From contig NZ_JAUOEO010000001.1 in NCBI RefSeq assembly GCF_030540825.1, positions 2,019,001 to 2,083,000 on the forward strand: a DNA stretch of 64,000 nucleotides, given 5' to 3'. Positions 24,246 to 54,037 of this stretch are shown here, piece by piece (positions within the stretch are counted from its first letter, which is position 1; every line of letters begins with the position of its first letter). Both the position numbers and the translations under genes were made by a program. Origin of the DNA: Flavivirga spongiicola. GTDB taxonomy: Bacteria > Bacteroidota > Bacteroidia > Flavobacteriales > Flavobacteriaceae. The notes under the pieces were generated by a model. The model saw nothing but the letters and a program-made list of their open reading frames with translations, had not been told where the DNA came from and ran no database searches.

Positions 24246-24407
24246 CGACATTTTGTTTTTTCGCCTATACAAGACCACGACATTGATGTATTTTCGTACT
24301 TTTAAGGGAGCGGCACCCAACAAAGAATTCATTAATAAAAGTCAATGATAATTAGGGGTTCCGTAACAAAGAACCTTTTTTCTTATCATGTATACTTTTT
24401 GTTGAGG
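24246..24407 (+). promoter_or_regulatory. PUL promoter 1: CRACATT direct repeat and downstream box
   Basis: CGACATT occurs at 24246-24252 and 24278-24284, 32 bp apart, and is followed by TATACTTTTTGTTGAGG at 24391-24407. The block around the second repeat (CCTATACAAGACCACGACAT) is nearly the same as at 32479-32502 upstream of the next unit, and the distance from the second repeat to the box is 113 nt in both. The repeats are a candidate binding site for the upstream regulator and the box a candidate promoter core. The susC-type gene starts 65 nt after the box. Confidence 0.65.
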
Positions 24408-24471
24408 TTTAAAATATGGATACAACAAGGACTATAATTAGCTTTACTAAAACTAAAAAACTAAACTAAAA

Positions 24472-27400
24472 ATGAGACAAACTCTCTTTAAAATTTTAAC
24501 CTTATTCTTTTTTACGTATTCTGGTGCGCAAAGTATAGACATAAGTGGAAATGTTCAAGACAATACCGGATTTCCTATACCAGGGGTTAATGTACTTGTT
24601 AAAAACACAGCAAAAGGAGCAGTAACAGATTTTGATGGTAACTTTATAATTACCAATATCGAAATAGGTACTACGCTATCATTTAGTTACATCGGTTATA
24701 TAACAAAAGAATTTGTTATTACTGATGATTCTAATTTAACGATCCAATTGGAAGAAGACCTTGCCCAACTAGACGAAATCGTCGTAATTGGTTATGGTAC
24801 ACAAACCAAAAAAGAAATTACAGGCGCCGTTTCTGTTTTAGGAGCAGAAACCATTGAAGCGCTTAAACCAACACGAGTTGAACAAGCGCTACAAGGGCAA
24901 GTAGCCGGGGTTAATATAACCTCTCAGTCTGGTTCGCCCGGTGGTGCAGCAACTATTAGTATTAGAGGTGTTTCTACAAACGGCGATAGCAGACCATTAA
25001 TTTTAGTTGATGGCAATGTTATTGAGGACTTAAGTGTTATAAACCCCAGCGATATTGAAAGTATGAACATCCTTAAAGATGCCACCGCAGGTATTTATGG
25101 TGTAAGAGCTGCCAATGGGGTTATTTTAATAACCACCAAAAAGGGACGTCAAAACATGCCTTTAACAGTAGAATATAACGCCTATGGAGGTTTTCAACAA
25201 ACAACACGTAAAATACCAGTCCTTAATGCTACAGAATACGCTGTAGTAATAAATGAAGCCTTTGCGTCTGGTGGTAGTCAACCTCCTTTTGGAGACTTAT
25301 CCATTTTGGGTCAAGGAACAGATTGGCAAGATGAAGTTTTTGAAAACGCACCTATACAAAACCATAGCATTTTGCTAAAAGGGGGTGGTGAAAAATCATC
25401 ATATTCTTATAGTGGTTCGTTCTTAACACAAGATGGTATTGTTGGCGGTAATAAATCAAACTTTACACGTTTTACAAATGCCGCTACATACAATTTGGAT
25501 TTTCTTGAGAACTTTAAACTCACTTCAGGTCTAACTTTAATGAGAACGAATAAAAGAAATCTTCTTGAAAATGACTTGGGTTCTATTTTATTTAATGCCT
25601 TAAATATGGATCCAACCAAAGGCATTAGAGATGCCACTGGAGCATTTACAATTGCAGAAGGTTTAGGTAATGAAGTCATAAACCCCATAGCACAAATGGC
25701 TAATACCTATAATAGAGGTAAAGTCATGAAGCTAAGTGGTAATGCAGGCCTTTCGTATAACTTCTTAGAACACTTTACGGTGCAATCTAATATTCAATTT
25801 AATTATTCAGAAGTTACATCAAAAATATTTAGCCCTATCGTTGATTATGGAAGCGGAAAAGTATTTAATAAAGATAGAAGTGAAATTTCTGAAAACCTAG
25901 ATTATTTCAAAGATTACACCTTTGATGCTTTTATTAAGTACGAAAATAAGTTTAACGACATTCATAATGTAAATGTTTTATTAGGAACATCTGTATTTCA
26001 AACTACAGGAGAATATACGGGACTTAAAGGCTTTGATATTATAGATAATAATGTTATAAACGCATCCATCGAACAAGCATCAGATGTTGAAAATATTAAT
26101 CAAGCGTTAGGAAGGAATCGAACGTTCGATTCAAGACTGTTGTCCTACTTCGCGAGAGTTCAATATGATTACAAAGGAAAATATTTAGTGTCAGCAGTCG
26201 TTAGACGTGATGGTTCAACCAAGTTTGCACCAAATAATAGATTTGGATTTTTCCCTTCTGGATCTATTGGTTGGGTAGTTTCAGATGAAGCGTTTCTTGC
26301 AGACAGTAAAGTTTTCGATTTACTTAAGTTTAGAGCCTCTTATGGTGTTTTAGGTAACGATAGAATTCCAGATTACAAATTTGTTTCACTAAATGACGGA
26401 GAAGCTACATATACATATAATGATATATTAGTCTTTGGGTCATCTATAGGAGGCCTAGCTAACCCAGAAATTAAATGGGAAAAGCAAAAAACATTAGATA
26501 TTGGATTAGATGCTCGGATTTTAAATAACAAAGTAGATATTACGGTAGATTATTTTAATAAGAGAACAGAAGACCTATTAGTACAACCTCAAGTATCAGG
26601 TATCTTAGGAGCATCAGCACCAGGGTCGTCAGCACCATTTGTTAATGCAGGAATTGTTGAGAATACAGGATTAGAGTTCGCCATTGGTTATTCTGATAAT
26701 TTTAGTGATAATTTTAAATTTAGTATCAAGTATAATGTGACTACTTTAGATAATGAAGTTATTTCAGTAAGTAGTGATGGTGGCTTTGTTGAAGGAGGTG
26801 ATTTTGGTGTTGGGCAAGAATTTCCGCCTTCAAGAATGGAGGCAGGATTCCCAATAGGTTTTTTCTACGGTTTACAAACAGATGGTATCATCCAAAATCA
26901 AGACGAATTTAATAATGCCATACCAACAGCAACAAATCCACCACAAATAGGTGATTTGAGATTTGTTGATCAAAATGGAGATGGTATAATAGATAGTGAT
27001 GATAGAGTAAATCTTGGAGACCCTATACCAGATGCCACTATGGGTCTAAATATATCTTTAGATTATAAAAACTTCGATTTTGCAGCCTATGCATTTGCCT
27101 CTATTGGTAATGACATCGTTCGTAATTATGAAAGAAATCAAAATTTAGTTAACAAACCAACATATTTCTTAGATCGTTGGAATGGCGAAGGCACAACAAA
27201 CACAACACCTAGAGTAACTACAGCAGCTACGTCAAACACTTTGTTTTCAGATTATTTTGTAGAAGACGGGTCTTTTGTTCGATTGCAAAATGTACAACTT
27301 GGTTATAGCTTCTCAGACAAAGCGCTTGAGAATTCTAAAATAAGCAAACTACGACTATATGTCTCTGCAAGTAATTTGGTGACTCTAACCGAATATAGAG

Positions 27401-27507
27401 GTTACGATCCAACAGCGTCTTCAGGCGATCCAATTGGTGGGGGTATAGATCAGGGCTTTTACCCTAGCGCAAGTACATTCTTATTAGGAATTAATTTAAA
27501 AATTTAA
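24472..27507 (+). CDS. SusC/RagA-family TonB-linked outer membrane transporter
   Basis: The 1011-residue protein has a signal peptide (about 1-19), a CarboxypepD_reg-like domain (about 23-100), a TonB box region DEIVVIGYGTQ, a plug (about 115-230, with ILVDGNVIEDLSVINPSDIE and TAGIYGVRAANGVILITTKKG) and a large barrel. SusC proteins import oligosaccharides together with the SusD lid, which is encoded 9 nt downstream. The surrounding GH16, GH17, GH30 and phosphorylase genes indicate a beta-1,3/1,6-glucan substrate. It is the first gene of unit 1, driven by the promoter at 24246-24407. Confidence 0.97.
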   Translation: MRQTLFKILTLFFFTYSGAQSIDISGNVQDNTGFPIPGVNVLVKNTAKGAVTDFDGNFIITNIEIGTTLSFSYIGYITKEFVITDDSNLTIQLEEDLAQLDEIVVIGYGTQTKKEITGAVSVLGAETIEALKPTRVEQALQGQVAGVNITSQSGSPGGAATISIRGVSTNGDSRPLILVDGNVIEDLSVINPSDIESMNILKDATAGIYGVRAANGVILITTKKGRQNMPLTVEYNAYGGFQQTTRKIPVLNATEYAVVINEAFASGGSQPPFGDLSILGQGTDWQDEVFENAPIQNHSILLKGGGEKSSYSYSGSFLTQDGIVGGNKSNFTRFTNAATYNLDFLENFKLTSGLTLMRTNKRNLLENDLGSILFNALNMDPTKGIRDATGAFTIAEGLGNEVINPIAQMANTYNRGKVMKLSGNAGLSYNFLEHFTVQSNIQFNYSEVTSKIFSPIVDYGSGKVFNKDRSEISENLDYFKDYTFDAFIKYENKFNDIHNVNVLLGTSVFQTTGEYTGLKGFDIIDNNVINASIEQASDVENINQALGRNRTFDSRLLSYFARVQYDYKGKYLVSAVVRRDGSTKFAPNNRFGFFPSGSIGWVVSDEAFLADSKVFDLLKFRASYGVLGNDRIPDYKFVSLNDGEATYTYNDILVFGSSIGGLANPEIKWEKQKTLDIGLDARILNNKVDITVDYFNKRTEDLLVQPQVSGILGASAPGSSAPFVNAGIVENTGLEFAIGYSDNFSDNFKFSIKYNVTTLDNEVISVSSDGGFVEGGDFGVGQEFPPSRMEAGFPIGFFYGLQTDGIIQNQDEFNNAIPTATNPPQIGDLRFVDQNGDGIIDSDDRVNLGDPIPDATMGLNISLDYKNFDFAAYAFASIGNDIVRNYERNQNLVNKPTYFLDRWNGEGTTNTTPRVTTAATSNTLFSDYFVEDGSFVRLQNVQLGYSFSDKALENSKISKLRLYVSASNLVTLTEYRGYDPTASSGDPIGGGIDQGFYPSASTFLLGINLKI

Positions 27508-27516
27508 ACTGGTATT

Positions 27517-28986
27517 ATGAAAAAATTTATAATAAAAAATATCTTAATCGTTCTCGTTTTGACAACTTCATGTAGCGACGATTTTGTAGATGTGGCATCT
27601 CCAGACGAAATATCTGATGAATTCTTTAATTCAGAACAAGATTACCAAGATGCATTAATTGGAGCTTACGATGCATTACAATCCACCTATTTAAACGTCA
27701 TGCTTGGTGAAATAGCTTCAGATAATACGCTGGCAGGAGGAGAAAGCGCAACAGATGTTCCTGGGATTCAGGAAATAGATGATATGATACATACACCTGT
27801 AAATGCTCAATTAAGAGATATTTGGACTTGGATGTATGGAGGCGTTAGCAGAACTAACTACATACTGGAGTTTCAAGACAAAACAGATTTTCCTAATAAA
27901 AATAACGTACTAGCTCAAACAAAGTTTTTAAGAGCTTATTATTATTTTGAATTAGTAAAGTGGTTTGGCGACATCCCCTTAATTATAGATAAAAGAGTAC
28001 AATTTGGTGAAGAATTAGGAATTGACAAATCACCTAAAGCAGATGTTTACGCTTTAATAGAGAACGATTTAACATTTGCAATATCAAATTTACCCAATAC
28101 TCAAGCCCAAAAAGGTAGAGTGACTAAGGCTGCGGCACAAGCATTATTAGGTAAGGTTTATTTGTATCAAGACAAATTTTCAGAATCCGCAACTGTTTTA
28201 GAGAACCTTATTGATAGTGCACCATCTATCCCTTTGGATTTACTTCCTACAGAAACAGCTAATACGATGTTTGAAAACGATAATGAAAATAACATAGAGT
28301 CTGTTTTCGAAGTACAATATACGGATGAAGAAGGAGGAAGTTTTGATTGTTTACAATGCAGCGAAGGTAATGTAGCTGTTGGATTTAATGGTATAAGAAA
28401 TTATGATGGTACGTTATTTGAATCTGGATTTAGTTTCAATGTACCAACACAAGAAGCAGTAGACGCATTTGAAGCGGATGATATTCGTTTAGAATATTCC
28501 ATATTAGATATCAATGCCTGGGCAGCAGAAACAGGAGCTAGTTTTAAAGAAGGCTTTGAGCATACAGGATATTATAACAGAAAATATATAGCGCGTCAAG
28601 GTGATTTAAATACGGGGGACGCGAATTTAACCAATCCAAACAATTATAGAGCTATTCGTTTTGCCGATGTGCTATTATTGGCTGCAGAGGCCTTAAATAG
28701 AGGTGGCATAAGTGATGATCGAGCAAGAACTTACCTTAATAGAGTAAGAAATAGAGCGACATTATCAGATGTTACCACATCTGGTACAAACTTAACGAAC
28801 GATATATATAAAGAACGCCGCGTAGAGTTAGTTGGTGAAGGTCACCGTTTCTTCGATTTAGTAAGAACAGGTAGAGCTGCAAACGAAATAGATGGGTTTG
28901 TTTCGGGAAAACATGAAGTGTTTCCAATACCGTCCATTGAAATTCAATTGGCTGGAAACAGATGGGAACAGAACCCTAATTACTAA
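27517..28986 (+). CDS. SusD/RagB-family surface glycan-binding lipoprotein
   Basis: The 489-residue protein has a lipoprotein signal (VLVLTTSCSDDF) and the SusD helical scaffold, with an N-terminal TPR region (NSEQDYQDALIGAYDAL) and the C-terminal signature FADVLLLAAEALNRGG and RRVELVGEGHRFFDLVR. It forms the lid of the SusC channel and binds oligosaccharide at the cell surface. It lies 9 nt after susC and 19 nt before the next lipoprotein gene, so it is in the same operon. Confidence 0.97.
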   Translation: MKKFIIKNILIVLVLTTSCSDDFVDVASPDEISDEFFNSEQDYQDALIGAYDALQSTYLNVMLGEIASDNTLAGGESATDVPGIQEIDDMIHTPVNAQLRDIWTWMYGGVSRTNYILEFQDKTDFPNKNNVLAQTKFLRAYYYFELVKWFGDIPLIIDKRVQFGEELGIDKSPKADVYALIENDLTFAISNLPNTQAQKGRVTKAAAQALLGKVYLYQDKFSESATVLENLIDSAPSIPLDLLPTETANTMFENDNENNIESVFEVQYTDEEGGSFDCLQCSEGNVAVGFNGIRNYDGTLFESGFSFNVPTQEAVDAFEADDIRLEYSILDINAWAAETGASFKEGFEHTGYYNRKYIARQGDLNTGDANLTNPNNYRAIRFADVLLLAAEALNRGGISDDRARTYLNRVRNRATLSDVTTSGTNLTNDIYKERRVELVGEGHRFFDLVRTGRAANEIDGFVSGKHEVFPIPSIEIQLAGNRWEQNPNY

Positions 28987-29005
28987 AAAATAAAAACTTA
29001 TAAAA

Positions 29006-31048
29006 ATGAAAACATTAAAATATTTATTTAGTATCGGTTTATTTTTACTGGTCTTTATTGGCTGTACAGAAGACGACCGTAGTTTAGATTATCTAAATGA
29101 AGTTATAGCTCCAGCAGACGTTTCGGCAACATTAAATATATCACAAGATAATTCTGGTTTAGTAACCATCACACCAAATGCGACAAATGCATCATCCTAT
29201 AATGTTAATTATGGAGATGGAACAGAAGAATTAGCAAACGTGAGCCAAGGAGAAAGTACAGAGCATACATATGCAGAAGGCACATATACTATAACTATTG
29301 AAGCTATTGGGCTTACTGGTTTAAAAACAGAAACAACACAAGAGTTGGTAGTGTCATTTAGAACTCCAGAAAATTTGATTGTTACGGCAGAAATAGACTC
29401 CTCTAATCCATTTAAATTAAATGTATCTGCTACTGCAGATTATGCAGCTTCTTTTGAAGTGTTTTTTGACACATCTATAATAGATGAAGAACCTACACTT
29501 CTTATGTTAGATGAAACGGTAAGTTTTGAATATCCTGCCGTTGGAGATTATACAATTAGAGTCGTGGCTTTAAGTGGTGGAGCAGAAACAACCGAAATCA
29601 CGCAAGTTATAACCATTGCGTCACCAACAGATTTTCCTATAGATTTTGAATTTATAGATACGGGCGCTTTAATAAGTTTTGATGGTGGCGTTATAACAGT
29701 TGAAGACAACCCTCAAGTGGATGCAAATAACAATTCCGCTACAGTGGCAAAAATTGTAAAAAATGCAGGGCAAGTTTGGGGTGGAAGCGCTATTAAAATG
29801 TCTGCGCCAATTGATTTTAGTGCAAAAAAATTAGTAACAATAGATGTTTGGTCTCCTAGACCTGACGGAAAACTGTTGTTTAAAGTTGAAGACCCCGCGG
29901 ATCCTCAAAATATTTTCTTCGAGAAAGAAGTAACATTGGTTGGAAATAGTGATTGGGAAAAAGTTACTTTCGATTTAAGTGATATTGACACCGCAGAAGC
30001 GTATCAAAATATCGTTTTAATCTTTGACCTCGGAATAGAAGGCGCAGGCGGTCCAGATTGGACATTCTATGTCGATAATATTAAACAGGCAGCACCTGTT
30101 TCAGGAGAAAGTGCTACACCTATAACTTTCGAAACACCATACGCGCTACGATCTTTTGACGGGGGTGATATTTCTATAGTCGCTAATCCAGATCAGGACC
30201 CAAATAACGGCAATACTTCTAGCACAACAGCAAAGTTAATTAAGAATGCTGGAGAAACATGGGGAGGTTCAGTAATTGGGGTAACACAACCGTTCTCATT
30301 TTTAAACTCAACAACAGTGACCGCGAAAGTATGGTCGCCAAGGGCGGGAATGACTTTAACCATGAAATTTGAAGATGATACGCCATGGCCAAATACGGTT
30401 GCATCAGCTGAAGTAGTGGCAACGAGTACTGTCGCAACTCAATGGGAAGAGTTGACATTTGACTTTTCTGGAATAGACACGAATATAGATTTTACAAATA
30501 TTGTGTTGATTATGGATAACGGAACAGCAGGAGATGGAACCGATAATTTCACTATTTATGTTGATGATATTTCGACAAGATCATTTTTAAATTTTGAGCC
30601 ACAACAGTCATTAAGAAGTTTTGATGGTGGCGATATTTCCATTATAACGAATCCAGATCAAAACCCTAATAACGGAAACACTTCTAGTATGGTATCACAA
30701 CTTGTTAAAAATGCTGGAGAAACATGGGGAGGTTCGGTAATTGGGGTAACACAACCGTTTTCTTTTGTTAATTCAACAACAGTTACTGCGAAAGTATGGT
30801 CTCCTAGGACAGGACTAACGTTAACATTGAAATTTGAAGATGATACGCCATGGCCAAATACAGTTGCCTCAGCGGAAGTAGTGGCAACGAGTACTGTTGC
30901 AAATCAATGGGAAGAATTAACTTTTGATTTTTCTGGTATTGATACAAATATAGAATTTACAAATCTTGTATTAATAATGGATAATGGCACCGCAGGCGAT
31001 GGTTCGAGCAATTACACCATATACGTAGACGATATTGACATAAATTAA
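29006..31048 (+). CDS. SusE-position lipoprotein with PKD-like domain and three tandem binding modules
   Basis: The 680-residue lipoprotein (lipobox VFIGCTEDD) starts with PKD/Ig-like domains (about 30-205), followed by three modules of about 155 residues (about 213-365, 370-520, 525-680). Each has the order F..GG..S/T...NP, KNAGxxWGGS, a VWSPR strand and an end like TFYVDDI, the fingerprint of a beta-sandwich carbohydrate-binding module. Modules 2 and 3 are almost the same, so they arose by recent duplication. It should be a surface glycan-binding protein that captures the glucan for SusCD. Related modules occur in the proteins at 38291 and 54174. I do not recognise a classified CBM family. 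Confidence 0.8.
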   Translation: MKTLKYLFSIGLFLLVFIGCTEDDRSLDYLNEVIAPADVSATLNISQDNSGLVTITPNATNASSYNVNYGDGTEELANVSQGESTEHTYAEGTYTITIEAIGLTGLKTETTQELVVSFRTPENLIVTAEIDSSNPFKLNVSATADYAASFEVFFDTSIIDEEPTLLMLDETVSFEYPAVGDYTIRVVALSGGAETTEITQVITIASPTDFPIDFEFIDTGALISFDGGVITVEDNPQVDANNNSATVAKIVKNAGQVWGGSAIKMSAPIDFSAKKLVTIDVWSPRPDGKLLFKVEDPADPQNIFFEKEVTLVGNSDWEKVTFDLSDIDTAEAYQNIVLIFDLGIEGAGGPDWTFYVDNIKQAAPVSGESATPITFETPYALRSFDGGDISIVANPDQDPNNGNTSSTTAKLIKNAGETWGGSVIGVTQPFSFLNSTTVTAKVWSPRAGMTLTMKFEDDTPWPNTVASAEVVATSTVATQWEELTFDFSGIDTNIDFTNIVLIMDNGTAGDGTDNFTIYVDDISTRSFLNFEPQQSLRSFDGGDISIITNPDQNPNNGNTSSMVSQLVKNAGETWGGSVIGVTQPFSFVNSTTVTAKVWSPRTGLTLTLKFEDDTPWPNTVASAEVVATSTVANQWEELTFDFSGIDTNIEFTNLVLIMDNGTAGDGSSNYTIYVDDIDIN

Positions 31049-31075
31049 AGTCACATAAATTTTAAAACTAGAATT

Positions 31076-32014
31076 ATGAAAAATATAAAATTTTTAATTA
31101 TAATGTTCTGTTTGGTTGGAGCTCTTTTTGGATGTCAAGAAGATGATTACCAAGTAGGAGAGATTATAGCGCCATCTAATATTCAAATCACATCCCAAAT
31201 TATAGGGGCAGACGCAAGTAATCCTAACGGTGACGGAAGCGGTATGGTGGATTTCATAGCGACAGCAGATAACGCAATCTCGTACCAATACCTAATCAAC
31301 GGAGAAAGAATGGCTGCACCTGAAGGAAAGCAAAGCTTTGTTTTTGCAGAGCTTGGACTTAATACCTATACCGTAACAGCCATTGCCTTTGGTATTGGTG
31401 GTATTTCCTCAACGAAGTCTATTAATATAGACGTAGTAAGTAACTTTGAGGATCAAGAAGCCAAAGACCTATTAAGCGGCGGTGTAGGATTAAACAAAAC
31501 ATGGTACTGGGCAGCTGATAAGATTGGTAATATAGGTTTAGGTCCAAATGAAACTCAGCCTGGTGGCGAACACACCTATTCGCAATGGTTTACATCTACG
31601 GCTTGGCATGCAGATAAATTATGTATGTATGATGCAGAATTTGTGTTTACACAGCCTACAGAAGGAGATTTGTTATATGAGCAGACGGTAGGTTCAGCCT
31701 ATACACCAGGAGATTTTGCTGCCTCCATTGGAGTTGATGGTGACACTTGCCATGGCGAAGATGTAGCACCATCTTTATTTGGTGTTAAAAGTGTCACTAT
31801 GATACCGTCTTCATCTAATGCAACGGTTGCTGGAGGTTATAGAGGTACTACGATGAGTATTTCTGACAATGGCTTTATGAGTTGGTATGTGGGTGTTAGT
31901 AAACTTGAAATTATTAAAGTAACAGCAACAACATTATTTGTTAGAATGACAGACAGTGCTATTCCAGGTAATGCATGGTATTGTAAGTATCAAACGGAAA
32001 AACCAGTACAATAA
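31076..32014 (+). CDS. Glycan-binding-type lipoprotein of the PUL
   Basis: The 312-residue lipoprotein (lipobox GALFGCQED) has an N-terminal PKD/Ig-like domain (about 25-125) and a C-terminal beta-rich domain (about 130-312) with many aromatic residues (GLNKTWYWAADKIGNIGLGP, FTSTAWHADKLCMYDAEF, GFMSWYVG) and paired cysteines. Such a layout is usual for surface glycan-binding proteins next to SusCD. It is the last gene of unit 1, 27 nt after the preceding gene, and a strong terminator follows. Confidence 0.7.
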   Translation: MKNIKFLIIMFCLVGALFGCQEDDYQVGEIIAPSNIQITSQIIGADASNPNGDGSGMVDFIATADNAISYQYLINGERMAAPEGKQSFVFAELGLNTYTVTAIAFGIGGISSTKSINIDVVSNFEDQEAKDLLSGGVGLNKTWYWAADKIGNIGLGPNETQPGGEHTYSQWFTSTAWHADKLCMYDAEFVFTQPTEGDLLYEQTVGSAYTPGDFAASIGVDGDTCHGEDVAPSLFGVKSVTMIPSSSNATVAGGYRGTTMSISDNGFMSWYVGVSKLEIIKVTATTLFVRMTDSAIPGNAWYCKYQTEKPVQ

Positions 32015-32042
32015 AAGATTATAACATATACATAATATAAGA

Positions 32043-32076
32043 AAGAAGGTGCAAATAACTTTGCACCTTCTTTTTG
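32043..32076 (+). terminator. Intrinsic terminator ending unit 1 of the PUL
   Basis: AAGAAGGTGCAAA (32043-32055) pairs with TTTGCACCTTCTT (32060-32072), with a 4-nt loop and a T run. It separates the SusCD operon from the next unit. Confidence 0.93.
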
Positions 32077-32463: not shown

Positions 32464-32625
32464 CAACATTTGTTTTTTTCACCTATACAACACCACAACA
32501 TTACGTATAAAAACGAAATTTTACTGCCCTTCATACAGTTGGAGATTTATCAATTAAACCCTATGAATATTGCTATTCTCGCAATAAATGATATAAATAT
32601 TAACGATGTATGTTTTTTGTTGAGG
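32464..32625 (+). promoter_or_regulatory. PUL promoter 2: CRACATT direct repeat and downstream box
   Basis: CAACATT occurs at 32464-32470 and 32496-32502, again 32 bp apart. TATGTTTTTTGTTGAGG follows at 32609-32625, 113 nt from the second repeat, exactly as at promoter 1. Of 30 bases ending at the second repeat, 26 match promoter 1. The first gene of unit 2 starts 130 nt after the box. Confidence 0.65.
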
Positions 32626-32754
32626 TCTTTTTTATCAATTCAACAACCAAACATGCTAAATTTATAATTCTCTAAAATGTCTTGGTTAAAATAATGCCTA
32701 CTCTTTAATCTCTTAGCATTTTTTATAGAAAACTAACGTAAAAATAAAAATACT

Positions 32755-41141: not shown

Positions 41142-44100
41142 ATGAATCAAACCATTTATAATAGAGAAGATACGGCTACAAAACCATCAAATAAAATAAC
41201 TGGAAAACTAGTTAGCTTTGATAATGAAACGTATTACAAGATCTCAAATAGCGATGCGATGCGTCCATTTTTCATGAGTATTGTAAGCGATTCAAACCAT
41301 TGGATGTTTATATCCAGTAATGGCGGTTTATCTGCGGGAAGAAAAAATTCTGAATCTTCATTGTTTCCGTATTATACAGACGATAAAATAACAGAATCGG
41401 CGGATATTACAGGAAGTAAAACCATATTCCAGATTCATTTAGGTAGAGAAACTTATATATGGGAGCCTTTTTCAATACGTCAAATGGGGGTTTATGAAAC
41501 ATCAAGAAATTTATATAAAAACAGTTTTGGAAACAAAATCATTTTTGAAGAAATAAACCTTGATTTGGGATTAACTTTCAGATACCAATGGAGCTCTAGT
41601 AATCAATTTGGTTTTGTAAAAAAGTCAACATTGATAAACAATTCTGATTCTAAAATTCGAATTACTCTATTAGACGGATTACAAAACATCTTACCTGCAG
41701 GCGTTACTTCCGATTTACAAAACAGTAGAAGTAATTTAGTTGATGCTTACAAGAAAAGTGAATTATTACCCGACGTTGGTTTAGGCATTTTTACATTGAG
41801 TGCTGTAATAGTTGACAAAGCAGAACCTAGTGAAGCATTAAAGTCTAACACCGTTTGGTCTGTTGGCCTTGAAAACCCCATTCATTTAATGTCGTCATTG
41901 CAGCTTGATAGCTTTAGAGAAAAGAATGCTTTAATACAAGAAGTTGATGTAAAAGCTGAAAAAGGGGCTTATTTTATTTCTTCCAGTATAGACTTAGCAT
42001 CAAATTCAGAAAAAAACTGGCTATTTGTTGCTAACGTAAACCAATCTATTTCAGGTATTAATCAAATCTCAAAAATCATTAAAAATGAAAAAGACATATC
42101 TAGTCTTATTCAAAAAGATATTGATGCTGGAACCGAAAATTTAATTCAATTAACAGCAGCGGCAGATGGGTTACAACTAACAGCAGATCCTTTAATAAAC
42201 ACAAGACATTTTTCAAACACACTATTCAATATTATGCGTGGAGGTGTTTTTGATGATAATTACAATATTGAAAAAACAGATTTTGTAAAATATATAGCAA
42301 ATGCGAACAAAGAATTTTTCAATAAAAAAGAAAATCAGTTAAAGAATTTACCAGCACTATTCACGCTTAACTATTTAAAAAATCTGGCAGAACAAGATGT
42401 AGATGACACTTTTAAGCGCCTTAGTTTTGAATACTTACCCTTAAAGTTTAGCAGAAGACATGGAGACCCTAGTCGACCTTGGAATAAGTTCTCAATAAAT
42501 ACCCATAGTGAAACTGATGGCTCTAAGATCTTAGATTATGAAGGAAACTGGCGAGATATTTTTCAAAATTGGGAAGCCTTAGCACATTCATATCCAGAGT
42601 TTATAGAGAGTATGATCCATAAGTTTTTAAACGCCACAACATTTGAAGGCTACAATCCGTATCGTGTTACAAAAGATGGTTTCGATTGGGAAATCATAGA
42701 AGAAAACGATCCGTGGTCCTATATTGGATATTGGGGAGATCATCAAATTATTTACCTATTAAAATTTCTGGAGTTTATAGAAGACCATTACCCTAACAAA
42801 CTTGAAGAACGTTTTAATCAGAACATTTTTGTTTACGCCAATGTCCCTTATAAAATAAAGAGTTATCAAGAAACGCTTATTAATCCTAAAGACACTATTG
42901 ATTTTGATTATGAGCTAGATGCAAAAATTAATGAAACAAAACAAAAATTAGGAGCAGATGGTACGCTATTAAGAGATAAAAATGATGCTATCTATAAAGT
43001 TAATTTAATTGAAAAATTAATAGCAACTGTATTAGCCAAAGTATCAAACTTTATTCCAGAAGGTGGTATTTGGTTAAACACGCAAAGACCAGAATGGAAT
43101 GACGCCAACAATGCGCTAGTAGGTAATGGCGTATCTATGGTAACGCTATATTATTTAAATCGTTTTTTAAACTTCTTTGAAAAGATTCTCGACAAATCAA
43201 AAACAAGCCAAGTTGATATTTCTATAGAACTAAAAACATGCTTTGATGCCGTTGTTTCAACACTTGAAACGAATAAACACATCCTTTCAGGAAAAGTATC
43301 CGATAAAAACAGAAAAACAGTTTTAGACGGCCTGGGATTAGCAGGAAGTAAGTACAGAACAACTGTTTACAATAATGGTTTTACAGGTAACAAATTTGTT
43401 ATAACAAAAACGGCGCTTCTAAGCTTTATAAAAACTACAAAAACCTATCTACAACATACCATTGATGCTAATAAGCGTTCGGACCATATGTTTCACGCCT
43501 ATAACTTGATGACCGTTGAAAATGACAAGGAGGTATCTATATCCTATTTACCAGAAATGCTGGAAGGGCAAGTAGCCGCTTTAAGCTCAGGTTATCTATC
43601 GCCAAAAGAAGCTTTAACACTGTTAGATGGTTTAAAAAAGAGTGCGCTCTTTAGAAGTGATCAGTATAGCTATATTTTATATCCAGATAAAGAATTACCT
43701 CGATTTGACAAGAAAAATAATATTCCTTCAAAAAAAGTAGAGCAGTCCAATTTACTAAAACAATTAGTAAAAGATGGAAACACATCTATTATAGAAAAGG
43801 ATGATTTAGGAGGCTATCATTTTAACAGTAATTTCAACAACGCAAGAAGTTTAAAAGATGCTCTGGCAGGCTTACCTAAAGACACTTATCAATTTTTGAT
43901 AAAAAAAGACACCGAACTATTACTAGACATCTTTGAAGACATTTTCGATCATAAATCATTCACAGGACGTTCAGGAACATTTTTTGGTTACGAAGGTCTC
44001 GGGTCTATTTATTGGCATATGGTTTCCAAATTATTACTAGCAGTTCAAGAAAATTGTTTGTTAGCCATAAACAACAATCAAAGCGAAAAGCTTATAGGGA

Positions 44101-44600
44101 AACTATTAGACCATTATTACGAAATAAATGCAGGCATCGGTGTACATAAATCACCCAAATTATACGGTGCTTTTCCAACAGATCCATATTCACATACACC
44201 AGCTACCAAAGGCGCTCAACAACCAGGAATGACCGGTCAGGTTAAAGAAGATATTTTAAGCAGATTTGGTGAACTAGGTGTTTTTGTAAACAATGGTCGC
44301 ATCACTTTTAACCCACATTTATTACGTAAAGAAGAATTTTTAAAAATCCCAAAAATTTTCACCTATACAGATGTTAAAAAGATGGAATGGGAAATGCTAT
44401 TAGAAGCAAATACACTTTGCTTTACCTACTGCCAAGTACCTATAAAATATCAGCTTTCAAATAAAGATAGCTTACAAGTCTTTTTTAATAATAATAGACA
44501 ATTGAATTTTGATGATCTAAGTCTTATCTCAGAAATATCAAAATCAATTTTTCAAAGAAAGGGCGAAGTAACTCAAATAAATGTATTGCTAAAAAGATAA
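41142..44600 (+). CDS. GH149-like beta-1,3-oligoglucan phosphorylase
   Basis: The 1152-residue protein has no signal peptide, so it acts in the cytoplasm. The size, the N-terminal opening with MRPFFMSIVSDSNHWMF and SSNGGLSAGRKN, and the central WLNTQRPEWNDANNALVGNG match GH149, a phosphorylase family related to GH94. D654 in EWNDANN aligns with the catalytic aspartate of GH94 phosphorylases. GH149 enzymes convert beta-1,3-glucan oligomers plus phosphate into glucose-1-phosphate, saving ATP. Position next to GH17 and GH30 genes supports a laminarin-oligomer substrate. GH161 is another large phosphorylase family to consider, but less likely. Confidence 0.8.
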   Translation: MNQTIYNREDTATKPSNKITGKLVSFDNETYYKISNSDAMRPFFMSIVSDSNHWMFISSNGGLSAGRKNSESSLFPYYTDDKITESADITGSKTIFQIHLGRETYIWEPFSIRQMGVYETSRNLYKNSFGNKIIFEEINLDLGLTFRYQWSSSNQFGFVKKSTLINNSDSKIRITLLDGLQNILPAGVTSDLQNSRSNLVDAYKKSELLPDVGLGIFTLSAVIVDKAEPSEALKSNTVWSVGLENPIHLMSSLQLDSFREKNALIQEVDVKAEKGAYFISSSIDLASNSEKNWLFVANVNQSISGINQISKIIKNEKDISSLIQKDIDAGTENLIQLTAAADGLQLTADPLINTRHFSNTLFNIMRGGVFDDNYNIEKTDFVKYIANANKEFFNKKENQLKNLPALFTLNYLKNLAEQDVDDTFKRLSFEYLPLKFSRRHGDPSRPWNKFSINTHSETDGSKILDYEGNWRDIFQNWEALAHSYPEFIESMIHKFLNATTFEGYNPYRVTKDGFDWEIIEENDPWSYIGYWGDHQIIYLLKFLEFIEDHYPNKLEERFNQNIFVYANVPYKIKSYQETLINPKDTIDFDYELDAKINETKQKLGADGTLLRDKNDAIYKVNLIEKLIATVLAKVSNFIPEGGIWLNTQRPEWNDANNALVGNGVSMVTLYYLNRFLNFFEKILDKSKTSQVDISIELKTCFDAVVSTLETNKHILSGKVSDKNRKTVLDGLGLAGSKYRTTVYNNGFTGNKFVITKTALLSFIKTTKTYLQHTIDANKRSDHMFHAYNLMTVENDKEVSISYLPEMLEGQVAALSSGYLSPKEALTLLDGLKKSALFRSDQYSYILYPDKELPRFDKKNNIPSKKVEQSNLLKQLVKDGNTSIIEKDDLGGYHFNSNFNNARSLKDALAGLPKDTYQFLIKKDTELLLDIFEDIFDHKSFTGRSGTFFGYEGLGSIYWHMVSKLLLAVQENCLLAINNNQSEKLIGKLLDHYYEINAGIGVHKSPKLYGAFPTDPYSHTPATKGAQQPGMTGQVKEDILSRFGELGVFVNNGRITFNPHLLRKEEFLKIPKIFTYTDVKKMEWEMLLEANTLCFTYCQVPIKYQLSNKDSLQVFFNNNRQLNFDDLSLISEISKSIFQRKGEVTQINVLLKR

Positions 44601-47412: not shown

Positions 47413-47433
47413 TACTAACTAAACCAATAAGAT

Positions 47434-49074: not shown

Positions 49075-49094
49075 AAAATTAATAGAATAAAATT

Positions 49095-49979
49095 ATGTCG
49101 TATAGAGCTGGTAAAATAAGATCGTTAGCAGGGTTAAATCTTGATGATAAGACCCCGAAAGGTATACATAACCTATTTAAAAGAGTATTAAAAAATGGGA
49201 TGCATGGACTCTGTTTTAGCCCTTATGAAGAAGGCCAAGAACCAGGTGATCAAATGACCGAAAAGCAAATTAGGCGTCGTATGAAAATCATAAAACCATA
49301 TACAAAATGGATTCGTTCTTTTTCTTGTACAGATGGTAATGAGGCTATTCCGCGTATTGCGAAAGAATATGGTATTAAAACCTTAGTGGGCGCTTGGTTA
49401 GGTGATGATGCAGAGATCAATAAAAAAGAGATTGCGGGACTTATAGAACTAGCAAAAGGAGGGTTTGTAGATATCGCTGCTGTTGGTAACGAAGTTATGT
49501 ATAGAGGTGATTTAACCGAAGATGAGCTTTTAGTTTTTATGCATGATGTTAAAAATGCTATCCCAGATGTACCAATGGGGTATGTAGACGCCTATTATGA
49601 GTTTAGTCACAGACCAAGAATTACAGAAGCCTGCGATGTGATTTTAGCTAATTGTTATCCTTATTGGGAAGGCTGTAGTCAAGAATATGCTTTGGTTTAT
49701 ATGAGAGACATGTATAATCAAGCTAAAAGTGCTGGAAACGGAAAAAAAGTGATTATAACAGAAACAGGATGGCCTTCTTTTGGTGAAGGATTGCAAGGCG
49801 CTATTCCATCACAAGAAAATGCTGTGAAGTATTTTATAAACTCACAAATATGGTCTAATGATGATGATATTGAGATGTTCTATTTTTCATCTTTTGATGA
49901 ATCATGGAAAGTGGGGGCTGAAGGTGATGTAGGAGCGTATTGGGGACTCTGGGATAAAGACGAAAAATTAAAGTTTTAG
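49095..49979 (+). CDS. Leaderless GH17 glycoside hydrolase
   Basis: The 294-residue protein begins MSYRAGKIRSLAGLN with no signal peptide or lipobox, so it should be cytosolic. It is a minimal GH17 barrel with both catalytic residues: E133 in AAVGNEVMYRG and E223 in VIITETGWPSFG. It resembles the lipoprotein GH17 at 44611 but is shorter and diverged. Next to a transporter and a phosphorylase, it probably trims imported beta-1,3-oligomers, or acts as a transglycosylase as some GH17 enzymes do. It is the last gene of unit 3. Confidence 0.88.
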   Translation: MSYRAGKIRSLAGLNLDDKTPKGIHNLFKRVLKNGMHGLCFSPYEEGQEPGDQMTEKQIRRRMKIIKPYTKWIRSFSCTDGNEAIPRIAKEYGIKTLVGAWLGDDAEINKKEIAGLIELAKGGFVDIAAVGNEVMYRGDLTEDELLVFMHDVKNAIPDVPMGYVDAYYEFSHRPRITEACDVILANCYPYWEGCSQEYALVYMRDMYNQAKSAGNGKKVIITETGWPSFGEGLQGAIPSQENAVKYFINSQIWSNDDDIEMFYFSSFDESWKVGAEGDVGAYWGLWDKDEKLKF

Positions 49980-49995
49980 GCAAATGGTTAAATAA

Positions 49996-50117
49996 ACCAC
50001 TAAGCTTTGGCAGGCTAAAAGTCTGCTTTATGAAATACCAAAATATAAACATTGTAAAACTGAATTAGTGTGAATTCGTGAAGCCAGCCGGCTGGCTGGT
50101 TCGTATCAAAAGTTTTG
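49996..50117 (+). repeat. Dispersed intergenic repeat, copy B (shortened)
   Basis: It shares with copy C the blocks CTTTGGCAG..TAAAAGTCTGC, TGAAATACCAAAATATAAA, AACATTGTAAAACTGAATT, GTGTGAATTCGTGAA and TTCGTATCAAAAGTTTT. The GC-rich palindrome CCAGCCGGCTGGCTGG is inserted at about 50084-50099. It begins 17 nt after the GH17 stop and ends 33 nt before the start of the next gene. Confidence 0.75.
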
Positions 50118-50149
50118 TTACATTAAGTAAATTTATAATTAAGAAGGTA

Positions 50150-53100
50150 ATGATCAGAATTAAACCCAATTATGTCACAATATTGATATTGATTATAATC
50201 ATGTCTTGCCAAAAATCAAAACGCCCGCTATGCGCAGAGACATTAGTTGGAGGGTTTCAATTACTTTCTTCAGATAAAACAGGCATTGATTTTAATAACT
50301 CCATTAAAGAAACCGAAAATTTTAATCACTTTTATTATTCCCAAATATATAATGGTGCAGGAGTCGCTATAGGCGATATAAATAATGATGGTCTATCAGA
50401 TATATTCTTTTGTGGCAACCAAGTGAGTGATAGACTTTACTTAAACAAAGGCCATTTTCAATTTGAAAATATTACTAAGAAATCAAGAGCAGCCAGAGTT
50501 TCAGGATGGTCTTGGGGCGTAACCATGGTCGATGTAAATTCGGATGGCTATCTCGATATTTATGTTAGCAGAAATGGAGAATTCATGAATCCTGAGCAAC
50601 GTAAAAATCTACTTTACATAAATAATAAAGATCTTACATTTACAGAATCTGCGATGGCTTATGGGCTTGCAGATGCCGGATATTCTACCCAAGCAGTCTT
50701 TTTTGATATGGATAATGATGGTGATTTGGATATGTATCAAGTCAACCAACCAGCAGACCAAAAGCTGTTTATTCGTCACACGATCACGGAAGACAGTTAT
50801 AAATTCTTTACACATAAATTATATATAAATGATAAAGGGAGATATCGTGATGTCTCAGAATACGCAGGTATCTCAAGGGTTTTTGCATATGGGTTAAGTG
50901 TTAATGCTGCCGATTTCAACAATGATGGATGGACCGACCTATATGTTGCTAATGACTATGATGAACCAGACTTTATGTATTATAATAATGGAGATGGAAC
51001 GTTTCGAAATGTGATTAATGAAAATTTAAAACATATTTCCAGGTTCAGTATGGGATCAGACGTAGGTGATATAAACAACGATGGGTTGATAGATATTATC
51101 ACGTTAGAAATGGCTGCAGAGGATCATTTTCGATCAAAAACCAACATGGGTTCTATGTCAACCGAAAATTTCAATCAACTAGTTAGTTTAGGAAAGCATT
51201 GTCAATACATGTCAAATACACTACAAGTTAATACAGGTGTCGGCAGTTTTTCTGACGTTGCTAATATGGCTGGCGTTGCTAAAACCGATTGGAGTTGGGG
51301 CGGGTTGTTTGTAGATTTAGATAATGATGGTTTAAAGGATATAATAATATCCAATGGCGTTAAAAAAGATGTTAGAAATAATGATTATATGGCTATTGTA
51401 ACCAATCTAGATCCAAATATATCGACGCAAGAATTTTTCAATATAAGTAAAAACACACCTTCCCAACCTATTTCTAATTATGTTTATAATAACAAAGGCA
51501 ATCTTCAGTTTAAAAAGGTCACAAAAGATTGGGGTTTTGAAACACCAAGTTTCTCAAGCGGAATAGCTTATGGAGATCTGGATAATGATGGCGATTTAGA
51601 CGTTGTTACAAATAATATGGACGCTTTAGCATTCGTCTATGAAAACAAAGCGACCGGCAATTTCTTAAAGATTGATCTAGAAGGTTCCGATACAAACACA
51701 TTTGGTTATGGGGCTAAAGCAACTATTCATCATAACGGTAACATGCAGGTTTTAGAAAATTCAGTGACCAGAGGCTATTTATCTTCGGTAGAACCAGGCT
51801 TATTTTTTGGATTGGGTAAAGAGATTGAAGTTGAGAAAGTGGAAGTCAAGTGGCCAGATGGCAAAATAAATGTGTTTGAAAATATAAAGGCAAATACAAC
51901 ACTTACTGTTAAATATTCAAAAGCAAAAACCCCAACAAAACGAGTTGAAAAAAAACAACCCTTATTAGCTCAAATAGAACCTAACGATATTGGTATTTCT
52001 TATAGTCATAAAGAAAATGAGTTTGATGATTTTGAAGTTGAAATTTTACTACCCCATAAACTATCTCAAAACGGCCCTTTCTCTACTGTCGGGGATGTTA
52101 ACGGAGACGGATTGGAAGATTTATTTATTGGTGGAGCAGCAGGACAAGGCGGCATACTCTATCTTCAAAACACCAATGGACAATTCCGTAAAAGCACATC
52201 GCAGCCTTGGGAAAATGATAAAGACTCAGAAGATTTAGGAGCCCTATTTTTAGATGTAGACGGAGATAATGATCAGGACTTATTTGTTGCTAGTGGCGGT
52301 AATGAATTTAAACAAGGAAATACTTTATTAAAAGACAGACTATATATAAATAATGGGCAGGGCGTATTTGCTAAAAGTGATCATGGGCTACCGCCTATTT
52401 TTGAAAGCTCTCACTGCGTGAAGGCATCTGATATTGATGCAGATGGCGATCTAGATATATTTGTTGGTACACGACTTATTTCTAGACAATATCCTTTTCC
52501 AGCAAGTAGTTATTTGCTTATTAACGATAATGGCGTGTTTAAAAAAGCACCCAGTAAAACCGCTCCAGATCTTGAAAATATGGGATTAGTTACTGATGCT
52601 GTTTTTACAGATATTGATGGTGATAATGACGCAGATTTGATGTTAGTTGGAGAGTGGATGCAAATTATAATTTTAGAAAACAAAGAAGGGGTCTTTATAA
52701 ATAGTTCGGAAAAATATGGACTTAAAGACACCCGAGGTTTATGGTGGTCTATAACGGCTAGTGACCTAGATAACGATGGCGATGATGATTATATAGTTGG
52801 AAACTTAGGCATTAATAATAAATTTAAGGCAACCAAAGAACACCCTTTTAAGGTATACGCCAACGACTTTGATAACAATGGAACAAACGATATTGTATTG
52901 GCAAAATTTTATAAAAACGATTACGTGCCCGTAAGAGGAAGAGAATGTACAAGTCAACAAATGCCATATGTTGCAGATAAATTCAAAGATTTTAATAGTT
53001 TCGCGGCTTCCAAATTATTAGACATTCTACCAGAAGATAAAGTAGGCGATGCGGTTAAATATGAGATTCATAATTTTGAAAGCATTATTTTAATAAATGA

Positions 53101-53443
53101 AGGTGGTAAGTTACTAAGACAATTACTTCCGATACAAGCTCAAATGTCCCCTATTAAATCGTCGCTGGTATTAGACGTTGATAATGATGGCAATAAAGAC
53201 ATTATTACTGTTGGCAATCATTATGGCGTAGAAGTTGAGACCACTCGCTATGATGCTAGTATTGGTGCCGTGCTTTTAGGAGATGGTAAAAACAATTTTC
53301 ATTTCATGCCGCCTTCACAGAGCGGGCTTAATATTCCCTATGATAGTAGAGATATTAATTACATCAAACAGGAAAATAACCAAAACACCATAATCGTTAC
53401 AAATAATAATTCTTCCCTCTCAGTTTATAATTACAAAAACTAA
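50150..53443 (+). CDS. FG-GAP/VCBS repeat lipoprotein with UnbV/ASPIC domain
   Basis: I start at the ATG at 50150, which gives a lipoprotein signal (ILILIIIMSCQKSK). The frame is open upstream to a GTG at 50078, but that lies in repeat copy B. The product of about 1097 residues has many FG-GAP/VCBS calcium-type repeats (for example DINNDGLSDIFF, DVNSDGYLDIYV, DMDNDGDLDMY), a UnbV/ASPIC domain at about 500-590 (GYGAKATIHHNG, VEVKWPDGKINVFENI), and another set of FG-GAP repeats to the end. CRTAC1-type proteins like this often accompany PULs as surface lipoproteins; their role in glycan use is unproven. Confidence 0.85.
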   Translation: MIRIKPNYVTILILIIIMSCQKSKRPLCAETLVGGFQLLSSDKTGIDFNNSIKETENFNHFYYSQIYNGAGVAIGDINNDGLSDIFFCGNQVSDRLYLNKGHFQFENITKKSRAARVSGWSWGVTMVDVNSDGYLDIYVSRNGEFMNPEQRKNLLYINNKDLTFTESAMAYGLADAGYSTQAVFFDMDNDGDLDMYQVNQPADQKLFIRHTITEDSYKFFTHKLYINDKGRYRDVSEYAGISRVFAYGLSVNAADFNNDGWTDLYVANDYDEPDFMYYNNGDGTFRNVINENLKHISRFSMGSDVGDINNDGLIDIITLEMAAEDHFRSKTNMGSMSTENFNQLVSLGKHCQYMSNTLQVNTGVGSFSDVANMAGVAKTDWSWGGLFVDLDNDGLKDIIISNGVKKDVRNNDYMAIVTNLDPNISTQEFFNISKNTPSQPISNYVYNNKGNLQFKKVTKDWGFETPSFSSGIAYGDLDNDGDLDVVTNNMDALAFVYENKATGNFLKIDLEGSDTNTFGYGAKATIHHNGNMQVLENSVTRGYLSSVEPGLFFGLGKEIEVEKVEVKWPDGKINVFENIKANTTLTVKYSKAKTPTKRVEKKQPLLAQIEPNDIGISYSHKENEFDDFEVEILLPHKLSQNGPFSTVGDVNGDGLEDLFIGGAAGQGGILYLQNTNGQFRKSTSQPWENDKDSEDLGALFLDVDGDNDQDLFVASGGNEFKQGNTLLKDRLYINNGQGVFAKSDHGLPPIFESSHCVKASDIDADGDLDIFVGTRLISRQYPFPASSYLLINDNGVFKKAPSKTAPDLENMGLVTDAVFTDIDGDNDADLMLVGEWMQIIILENKEGVFINSSEKYGLKDTRGLWWSITASDLDNDGDDDYIVGNLGINNKFKATKEHPFKVYANDFDNNGTNDIVLAKFYKNDYVPVRGRECTSQQMPYVADKFKDFNSFAASKLLDILPEDKVGDAVKYEIHNFESIILINEGGKLLRQLLPIQAQMSPIKSSLVLDVDNDGNKDIITVGNHYGVEVETTRYDASIGAVLLGDGKNNFHFMPPSQSGLNIPYDSRDINYIKQENNQNTIIVTNNNSSLSVYNYKN

Positions 53444-53447
53444 ACTA

Positions 53448-53666
53448 CTATGGACTGGAAGTCCATAGATTCGCTTTGGCAGACTGAAAGTCTGTTTCGT
53501 GAAATACCAAAATATAAAATAATAAACATTGTAAAACTGAATTCGTGTGAATTCGTGAAACCAGCCAGCCGGCAGGCTGGTTCGTGTCAAAAGTTTTTAG
53601 AAGCTGAAAGCGAAATGCACTAAAAGTACATAGCTTTAACTGCATTTGAAATCAGTAAAGTGCTGC
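53448..53666 (+). repeat. Dispersed intergenic repeat, copy C
   Basis: About 220 bases start 5 nt after the preceding stop codon. Visible stem-loops are TATGGACTGGAAGTCCATAG and GGCAGACTGAAAGTCTG, and the GC-rich palindrome CCAGCCAGCCGGCAGGCTGG is inserted near 53561-53580. The remainder follows copy A closely up to GCTTTAACTGCATTTGA. Copies B and C bracket the FG-GAP gene as direct repeats. Confidence 0.75.
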
Positions 53667-53853
53667 TTTAAAAAAACCATACGATATTAAAAAAATCTAG
53701 TAGTAAAAAGTTTCAGACCAATGGGTCATATTGTTCTATTAAGTACTGAGAATCAGGCTCGGTATTTATTAGTATTTCTACAAACTTGATGCTTTTAGTA
53801 ACAATAAATGTATACAAGGATAAAAAGTATGACAGCAATTAATAAAATCACCA

Positions 53854-54037
53854 CAACATTGCCACAACATTGCTTCTTAATTGCTTTATTTACAGTTAAT
53901 TAATACTAAAATGATTCTAAAAAGAAGTAGCCTAAATATCCCGTTTATCCCCATTAACAAAGACTTACTACCCTATCGTCATTGTGAATAATGCAAAAAC
54001 AAACTGCTTTTATTGTCTTGTATGCTTTTTGTAGCGG
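53854..54037 (+). promoter_or_regulatory. PUL promoter 3: CRACATT direct repeats and downstream box
   Basis: CCACAACATT occurs twice, at 53851-53860 and 53862-53871, so the core CAACATT repeats are 11 bp apart. TATGCTTTTTGTAGCGG at 54021-54037 matches the boxes of promoters 1 and 2. The distance from the second repeat to the box is 156 nt, longer than at the other promoters. The T9SS protein gene starts 137 nt after the box. No other feature is seen between 53667 and 54173. Confidence 0.55.

What the first reader, a model, noticed from the sequence alone, without database searches (positions are those of the whole stretch)
24246..54037. Shared operator/promoter architecture at three PUL promoters
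Seen: pairs of CRACATT direct repeats at 24246/24278 (32 bp apart), 32464/32496 (32 bp apart) and 53854/53865 (11 bp apart), so close to three, three and one helical turns. Each is followed by a TATRYTTTTTGTNGMGG box (24391, 32609, 54021). At the first two promoters the distance from second repeat to box is identical, 113 nt, although the DNA between is not conserved. Inference: this is the binding site and promoter core of the locus regulator, probably the membrane LuxR-type protein at 21433-24240, and it groups the SusCD operon, the GH16 unit and the distant T9SS protein gene into one regulon.
Basis: partly seen in the sequence, partly recalled or inferred. Interest (0 to 1): 0.75.

Follow-up and report, generated by a model that had tools for sequence, protein, structure and literature searches.

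The report
Paired, opposed switches at sugar-locus promoters
Three promoters of a marine bacterium's beta-1,3-glucan (laminarin-type) locus carry two copies of one likely regulator site that face each other about a dozen DNA turns apart, an arrangement kept across dozens of related genera, which suggests that the neighbouring membrane regulator holds the promoter DNA in a fixed geometry to turn on sugar-eating genes.

Summary
In detail: repeats and boxes lie where stated, and the exact box occurs only three times in the 5.9-Mb genome, all here. The regulon idea is supported: in the capped list examined, box plus repeats were found in 97 of 397 family genomes, all 97 with a relative of the locus regulator, and three promoter classes (SusCD, GH2/GH16 unit, T9SS-tail gene) recur in other genera. 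The "promoter core" reading is not supported. The repeats belong to a tandem 11-bp direct repeat (ACCWMWACAWN x2, plus a half-site 21 bp upstream). The box reads as the same site on the opposite strand. The likely promoter, TAnnTTTA, lies 50-51 nt beyond its start. Repeat-to-box distances cluster about 11 bp apart (114, 125, 136, 148) with empty gaps, so helical phase appears selected while the DNA between is not. A paralogous regulator in this genome and 27 relatives show the same layout with a different half-site. Best reading: a SusR-like membrane one-component activator binds two opposed, phased operators, as a loop or both facing the membrane. The nearest published prediction, for Bacteroides SusR, has only long-spaced direct repeats. 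All evidence is comparative; binding and transcription starts are untested.

The parts
21337..24240 (+). Regulator: N-terminal hydrophobic segment, Reg_prop / Y_Y_Y sensor, membrane segment near residue 766-789, C-terminal LuxR/GerE HTH; probable start near 21433
   Evidence: Pfam Y_Y_Y 1.4e-06, Reg_prop 6.7e-06, GerE 23.6 bits vs cut-off 23.5; hydropathy; many invariant C-terminal residues in 9 orthologues; sensor resembles PDB 4a2l
24242..24250 (+). Promoter 1, upstream third half-site CACTCGACA
   Evidence: 21 bp upstream of core, position conserved over 135 promoters
24263..24284 (+). Promoter 1, distal operator: tandem 11-bp half-sites GCCTATACAAG / ACCACGACATT
24389..24408 (-).
24439..24446 (+). 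Promoter 1, candidate -7 element TAGCTTTA; predicted start about 24451, 21 nt before the SusC ATG at 24472
   Evidence: +50 from box start; -12 to -5 placement from PMC9723704
32460..32468 (+). Promoter 2, upstream third half-site CCTACAACA
32481..32502 (+). Promoter 2, distal operator ACCTATACAAC / ACCACAACATT
32607..32626 (-). Promoter 2, proximal inverted operator: reverse complement ACCTCAACAAAAAACATACA, 126 bp from distal start
32657..32664 (+). Promoter 2, candidate -7 element TAAATTTA (+50); gene starts 32755 (GH2-like 1065 aa, then GH16 unit)
53850..53871 (+). Promoter 3, distal operator ACCACAACATT / GCCACAACATT; the third half-site position 21 bp upstream (ATGACAGCA) is poorly matched
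54019..54038 (-). Promoter 3, proximal inverted operator: reverse complement ACCGCTACAAAAAGCATACA, 169 bp from distal start
   Evidence: same layout and distance in same-genus locus L148
54070..54077 (+). Promoter 3, candidate -7 element TACATTTA (+51); gene starts 54174 (484-aa protein with T9SS sorting tail)

Best explanation
Each of the three promoters is an activator-dependent promoter with two copies of one operator in opposite orientation. The distal copy is a tandem direct repeat of an 11-bp half-site (ACC-W-M-W-ACA), with a third half-site two turns upstream (weak at promoter 3). The likely binder is the adjacent SusR-like membrane one-component LuxR regulator. Signalled by beta-1,3-glucan oligosaccharide in the periplasm, it occupies both copies on one face of the helix, closing a loop of about 11-12 turns (one turn fewer or one or more extra elsewhere), and the proximal-bound protein contacts RNA polymerase. 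Shown by sequence comparison: both copies, their orientation, the spacing comb, the near-fixed -7 distance, the recurring three-promoter regulon and regulator co-occurrence. Inferred: that this protein binds, the ligand, the start sites, activation, and loop or membrane geometry.
For: Core upstream of 135 of 153 non-redundant boxes, 20 column-shuffled controls 0-4 of 153; among box-selected loci alone 100 of 118. Spacing clusters at 114/125/136/148 with no sites at 117-120, 129-132 and 140-141; R=0.65 against 5000 smoothed nulls with maximum 0.26; one promoter per genus, 61 genera, mean R=0.67, null maximum 0.39; period 11.4 (bootstrap 11.1-11.7). Distal-derived matrix: best minus-strand tandem at 113-150 bp in 51 of 54 promoters (single half-site 47 of 54; plus strand 1 of 54). 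TA plus two or three of TTT at exactly +50 in 115 of 135 with core, 5 of 18 without; ten other shifts 0-17 of 153. Regulator in 97 of 97 genomes. Paralogue family: tandem in 28 of 28, inverted proximal copy in 27 of 28, TA at +49 to +52 in those 27.
Against: A whole-box column-shuffle test of box against core is weak (p=0.08); the second box half-site is degenerate (AAACATACA, not ACCWMWACA). 18 of 153 boxes have no core; of 7 genomes with only such boxes, 2 have the regulator. Six distances lie outside the five clusters (93, 104, 142, 169, 174, 194), one of them this window's promoter 3 distance, and L311 has 164. 6 of 60 regulator-first promoters lacked a recognisable core, and in several of the 51 (L253, L256, L270, L277) the match was not at a position also scored as a box. 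No binding, expression or start-site data exist here; the 97-of-97 association is inflated by shared descent.
Confidence: 0.8

Rival explanations
1. One reading: the box is the promoter core and the heptad pair alone is the operator.
For: The box is T-rich, starts TATRY, is well conserved and at fixed distance from the repeats at promoters 1 and 2.
Against: The distal-derived matrix matches it on the other strand (promoter 1 box also at 2 mismatches, where noise is high). In L261 and L266 the element at box position is ACCTATACATAGACTCTACA and ACCTATACAAGAGCACTACA on the minus strand, near-complete operators that no longer look like the box. A TAnnTTT element lies at +50.
Confidence: 0.07
2. 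Both copies are regulator sites but no DNA loop forms: each binds a separate regulator dimer, and phasing arises because the protein is anchored in the membrane and reaches only the membrane-facing side of the helix.
For: The regulator has a membrane segment; the comb needs only same-face placement. Its period of 11.4 does not separate the models.
Against: Opposite orientation of the copies is conserved, which independent binding would not obviously require.
Confidence: 0.3
3. The box is the site of a second factor (an ECF sigma factor or another regulator) that works with the repeat-binding regulator.
For: The whole-box similarity test is weak (p=0.08); SusCD loci are often ECF-controlled (recalled).
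Against: In the paralogous system the half-site changed to CTACGTCA or CTACATCA and the proximal element changed with it to TGACGTA or TGATGTA, as expected if one protein reads both.
Confidence: 0.08
4. Chance, low complexity or recent duplication explains the shared motifs.
For: CRACATT alone occurs 24 times in the window; box at 2 mismatches is at chance.
Against: Exact box 3 in genome, control 0; core in 51 of 199 and box in 125 of 397 family genomes against 7 and 13 for reversed patterns (my counts); non-conserved DNA between.
Confidence: 0.01

Closest known systems
Predicted SusR, SusR2, SusR3, SusR4 motifs of Bacteroides (Ravcheev et al. 2013, PMC3878776; passages and section 7 read)
   Same: Membrane regulator with periplasmic sensor and C-terminal HTH beside susC/susD; operators with helically spaced direct repeats; the closer paralogue group here has a direct half-site at +66 from its tandem in 16 of 19 (65 and 68 in two more), close to their 67 bp.
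   Different: They describe two direct sites 67 or 77 bp apart. In the parts read no 11-bp tandem and no inverted proximal copy is mentioned; their motif file was not readable here, so the letters were not compared.
Flavobacterial sigma-A promoters, TAnnTTTG at -12 to -5 (PMC9723704, passages read)
   Same: TA plus TTT at exactly +50 from the box start in 115 of 135 instances with core.
   Different: Last base is usually A (96 of 153) rather than G; no clear -33 TTG was seen among the conserved columns, as might be expected of an activator-dependent promoter.
DNA-looping regulators such as LacI, GalR and AraC (recalled; titles and abstract starts only)
   Same: Two operators at helically phased distance.
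   Different: Here the protein is membrane-anchored, the sites are convergent tandem direct repeats, and phasing is read from natural variation across genera; looping is not shown.
Hybrid two-component systems (HTCS) of Bacteroides PULs (PMC3878776, passages)
   Same: Related Reg_prop / Y_Y_Y sensor (PDB 4a2l, 3v9f).
   Different: No kinase, receiver or AraC domain found in this regulator.

Membership tests
SusR-like one-component PUL regulator | Periplasmic sensor, membrane segment, C-terminal HTH in one protein | tested here: met
   Pfam Reg_prop, Y_Y_Y, GerE; hydrophobic segment near 766-789; no kinase domain found. That the sensor is periplasmic is inferred
SusR-like one-component PUL regulator | Gene beside the susC/susD operon that it controls | tested here: met
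   SusC and SusD at 24472 and 27517; regulator then SusC at 66 of 135 promoters with core. Control itself is inferred
SusR-like one-component PUL regulator | Sequence homology to B. thetaiotaomicron SusR (BT3705) | not tested
   The SusR sequence was not fetched
SusR-like one-component PUL regulator | Operator of direct repeats 67 or 77 bp apart | tested here: not met
   Repeats are 11 and 21 bp apart with an inverted copy at 93-194 bp; only the closer paralogue group has a site near +66. Hence described as SusR-like in architecture, not filed under the published SusR motif
HTCS | Histidine kinase, receiver and AraC HTH in the same chain | tested here: not met
   No such domains found
Bacteroidetes sigma-A promoter | TAnnTTTG-like -7 box at fixed place | tested here: met
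   T 135, A 128, TTT 134/142/123 of 153 at +50 to +56; jointly 115 of 135 with core; TAGCTTTA, TAAATTTA, TACATTTA here
DNA-looping regulation | Helical-phase dependence of operator spacing | tested here: met
   Comparative comb, (natural variation, not a mutational test)
DNA-looping regulation | One protein assembly bridges both operators | not testable with these tools
   Needs footprinting, microscopy or a reporter assay

The most novel reading that the evidence does not exclude
A general operator grammar of flavobacterial membrane one-component PUL regulators: an 11-bp tandem direct repeat (often just after the regulator gene), an inverted copy about 9-15 turns downstream and 50 nt before the -7 element, phased by the helix. 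The half-site letters change with the regulator while the geometry stays, so that a membrane-anchored activator folds the promoter into a loop at the inner membrane.
Probability: 0.45. Interest if true: 0.72.

Novelty: new variant of a known kind. Interest (0 to 1): 0.62.

Why it matters
SusR-type membrane regulators sit beside glycan loci across the Bacteroidetes, yet the 2013 paper read here says that SusR binding sites remained uncharacterised and offers only predicted long-spaced direct repeats. The layout found here predicts where the protein binds, where transcription starts and which spacing changes should matter. It gives a simple sequence rule for finding operators of this regulator class in marine Flavobacteriaceae, and it raises a testable question: how does a protein fixed in the membrane activate transcription from two distant opposed sites?

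Tried and rejected
Heptad-only motif: CRACATT occurs 24 times in the window, so the pair alone is poor evidence. Box with 2 mismatches: chance level in this genome (66 against 78 in the reversed control), so no further regulon members are claimed from it; three 1-mismatch boxes elsewhere (C1:3404806, C1:3722707, C2:504241) were not followed. Tandem half-site with 2 mismatches: also near chance (29 hits against 19 control); only the two hits with 0-1 mismatch (promoters 2 and 3) stand alone, while promoter 1 and its inverted box appear at 2 mismatches.

Whole-box PWM shuffle: p=0.08, not decisive; the regulator-first scan was used instead. Rows: of 22 orthologue loci (L024-L045), L030 (contig ends early) and L042 (no box after its regulator) were left out; 40 regulator loci for which one search listed no box at that place were added, giving 60, of which 6 had no core and 54 were counted. 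In one search, 189 raw hits became 163 distinct and 153 below 75% ungapped identity. These 153 are of mixed origin: 115 from box-selected loci, 20 from regulator-selected, 17 from core-selected, 1 from the window; redone on box-selected loci alone, 100 of 118 have a core and the comb remains (R=0.62). The match list was capped, so not every box was seen. The window's promoter 1 box has 2 mismatches to the pattern used and is not in these sets.

A crude grammar finder on 5 regulator loci outside the family found nothing in 4; in the fifth (L348) it scored 15.5, reached by 1 of 40 shuffles. In an order-wide draw the exact tandem pattern hit 18 of 296 genomes; of 4 hits outside the family only L317 also had box and regulator. 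Periodicity could not be judged in the paralogue group (one cluster at 99-104, two at 114); in that call L334's proximal site was probably mis-picked. Plasmid similarity search: no match.

Paper searches: no listed title or abstract start described an opposed operator pair; one search listed 12 of 185. Passages of PMC7157763 and PMC12125979 were not relevant to this operator. Subscription papers and supplements were out of reach.
Full report
Check of the observation. The exact box TATRYTTTTTGTNGMGG has three matches in the 5.9-Mb genome, all in this locus, with none for the pattern read backwards. The 113-nt spacing at promoters 1 and 2 is right, and the DNA between is not conserved. What was missed is that the stretch from the first to the second heptad is conserved as a whole at promoters 1 and 2.

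The locus. The window lies at C1:2019001-2083000 of genome G000; the best-matching named relatives of the regulator are in Flavivirga. The regulator (about 21337/21433-24240) has Reg_prop, Y_Y_Y and a LuxR/GerE HTH, and its sensor resembles HTCS sensors of known structure. It is followed by SusC, SusD, a PKD protein, a GH2-like protein, GH16, a PKD/CBM protein, a GH149 beta-1,3-glucan phosphorylase, GH17, GH30, an MFS transporter, a second GH17, an ASPIC/FG-GAP protein and a T9SS-tail protein, with some proteins of unknown type between. This content fits beta-1,3-glucan (laminarin) use; the substrate is inferred.

Conservation. The core CCTATACAANACCACRACATT (up to 2 mismatches) occurs in 51 of 199 family genomes; the reversed pattern in 7 (my count). 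The box (up to 1 mismatch) occurs in 125 of 397 family genomes; the reversed pattern in 13 (my count). Of 22 orthologue loci (L024-L045), 19 have a strict box within 170 bp of the regulator stop, and the 20 tested by matrix all have core and box.

Anatomy. In 153 non-redundant box instances a core was found upstream in 135, with 20 column-shuffled controls at 0-4 of 153. The 153 are of mixed origin; on box-selected loci alone it is 100 of 118. The core resolves into two half-sites 11 bp apart, ACCWMWACAWN twice, with a third half-site 21 bp upstream. At the box, the minus strand reads ACCNCWACAAA-AAACATACA: the first half matches the half-site well (similarity 14.3, next best offset at or below 0), the second is degenerate. 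The whole-box shuffle test gave only p=0.08, so another test was made. In 60 promoters taken from regulator orthologues, 40 of them without a listed box, the half-site matrix from the distal copies was run over the downstream DNA. Of 54 with a distal core, the best minus-strand tandem lay at 113-150 bp in 51. In four of these (L253, L256, L270, L277) it did not coincide with a position also scored as a box. It lay at box position in L261 and L266, where the element no longer looks like the box. The best plus-strand half-site fell in that range once.

The likely -7. Aligned on the box, TAnnTTTR stands at +50 to +57: T 135, A 128, T 134, T 142, T 123 of 153 column by column. Jointly, TA with at least two of TTT at exactly +50 occurs in 115 of 135 with core and 5 of 18 without; ten other shifts give 0-17 of 153. 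In the window these are TAGCTTTA 24439, TAAATTTA 32657 and TACATTTA 54070 (the last at +51). A flavobacterial start-site map places TAnnTTTG at -12 to -5 (PMC9723704, passages), which would put the starts near 24451, 32669 and 54082 and the box at about -62 to -43.

Spacing comb. Core-to-box distances cluster at 114 (n=10), 125 (68), 136 (34), 148 (15) and 159 (2), with none at 117-120, 129-132, 140-141 or 152-158. The vector strength near 11.4 bp is 0.65 against a smoothed null with maximum 0.26 in 5000. With one promoter per genus (61 genera) it averages 0.67 against a null maximum of 0.39; on box-selected loci alone it is 0.62. Within genomes, differences between promoters are 0, 1, 2, 2, 8, 10, 10, 11, 11, 12, 12, 12, 13, 19, 23 and 29. 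The window values are 126, 126 and 169. Six distances lie outside these clusters: 93, 104, 142, 169, 174, 194, and L311 has 164.

Regulon and regulator. Of the 135 promoters with core, 66 lie between regulator and SusC and 26 between regulator and GH2; 8, 3 and 1 lie before GH2 after h312, GH16 or T9SS-type genes; and 17 lie after GH17, MFS or ASPIC genes, 15 of them before a recognised T9SS-tail, Big or PKD-type protein (my grouping; the rest are single or unrecognised cases). So the third promoter, which looked distant in the window, belongs to a recurring class. Among box-selected promoters the regulator is the nearest recognised upstream gene in 66 of 100 with core and 0 of 18 without. All 97 family genomes found with box plus core have a regulator relative at E up to 1e-120, against 133 of the other 300; of 7 genomes with only coreless boxes, 2 have it (the handle list was transcribed by hand, and shared descent inflates the association).

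Generality. A paralogue in this genome (C1:3551773-3554568, 32% identical) and 27 relatives, found in 28 of 199 genomes including this one, show the same plan with other letters. A tandem TACGTCA or TACATCA (up to 2 of 14 letters off) 11 bp apart occurs in 28 of 28, an inverted copy 99-114 bp downstream in 27 of 28, and TA at +49 to +52 from that copy in those 27. In 16 of the 19 closer members a further direct half-site stands at +66 (profile), close to the 67 bp that Ravcheev et al. predicted for Bacteroides SusR (PMC3878776, section 7). Proximal and distal letters change together, which argues that one protein reads both.

Mechanism. Shown by comparison: two opposed copies, their phase, the near-fixed -7 distance, and association with the regulator. 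Inferred: binding, ligand, activation, and whether the phase reflects a loop or simply the membrane-facing side of the helix. Direct-repeat operators are unusual for dimeric HTH regulators (PMC9723621, abstract start in the listing).

Novelty. The SusR-type regulator and long direct repeats are known as predictions; the opposed proximal copy and the phased comb were not seen in the listings and passages of the paper searches made. This is filed as a new variant of a known kind.

Noticed in passing
G000:C1:3551773-3554568 (L294, L320; outside the window): Second regulator of the same type, followed by a SusC-like gene, with its own operator set using half-site CTACGTCA and a middle half-site at +66 bp.
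   Followed up: yes
L339-L347: More distant relatives of that regulator use the half-site CTACATCA in the same layout, suggesting that letters evolve while geometry is kept.
   Followed up: partly
25351-25371: A core-like match (CCTATACAAAACCATAGCATT, 2 mismatches) inside the SusC gene, with similar matches at a similar place in L068 and L070; probably coding conservation.
   Followed up: partly
41142-44600: 1152-aa protein without a Pfam match at E 0.001 is a GH149 beta-1,3-glucan phosphorylase by NCBIfam (1791.8 bits).
   Followed up: no
50078-53443: An ASPIC/FG-GAP gene sits between GH17 and the third promoter here and in the same-genus locus L148; in other loci that promoter mostly follows GH17 directly.
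   Followed up: partly
about 20-37 bp upstream of the box in many promoters: A weaker conserved stretch resembling TTGAGGTTTT-ATAAA, possibly another inverted half-site; not explained.
   Followed up: no
G097, G299, G320, G351: Regulator relatives lie in open frames of about 1465-1524 aa instead of about 940, possibly fusions.
   Followed up: no
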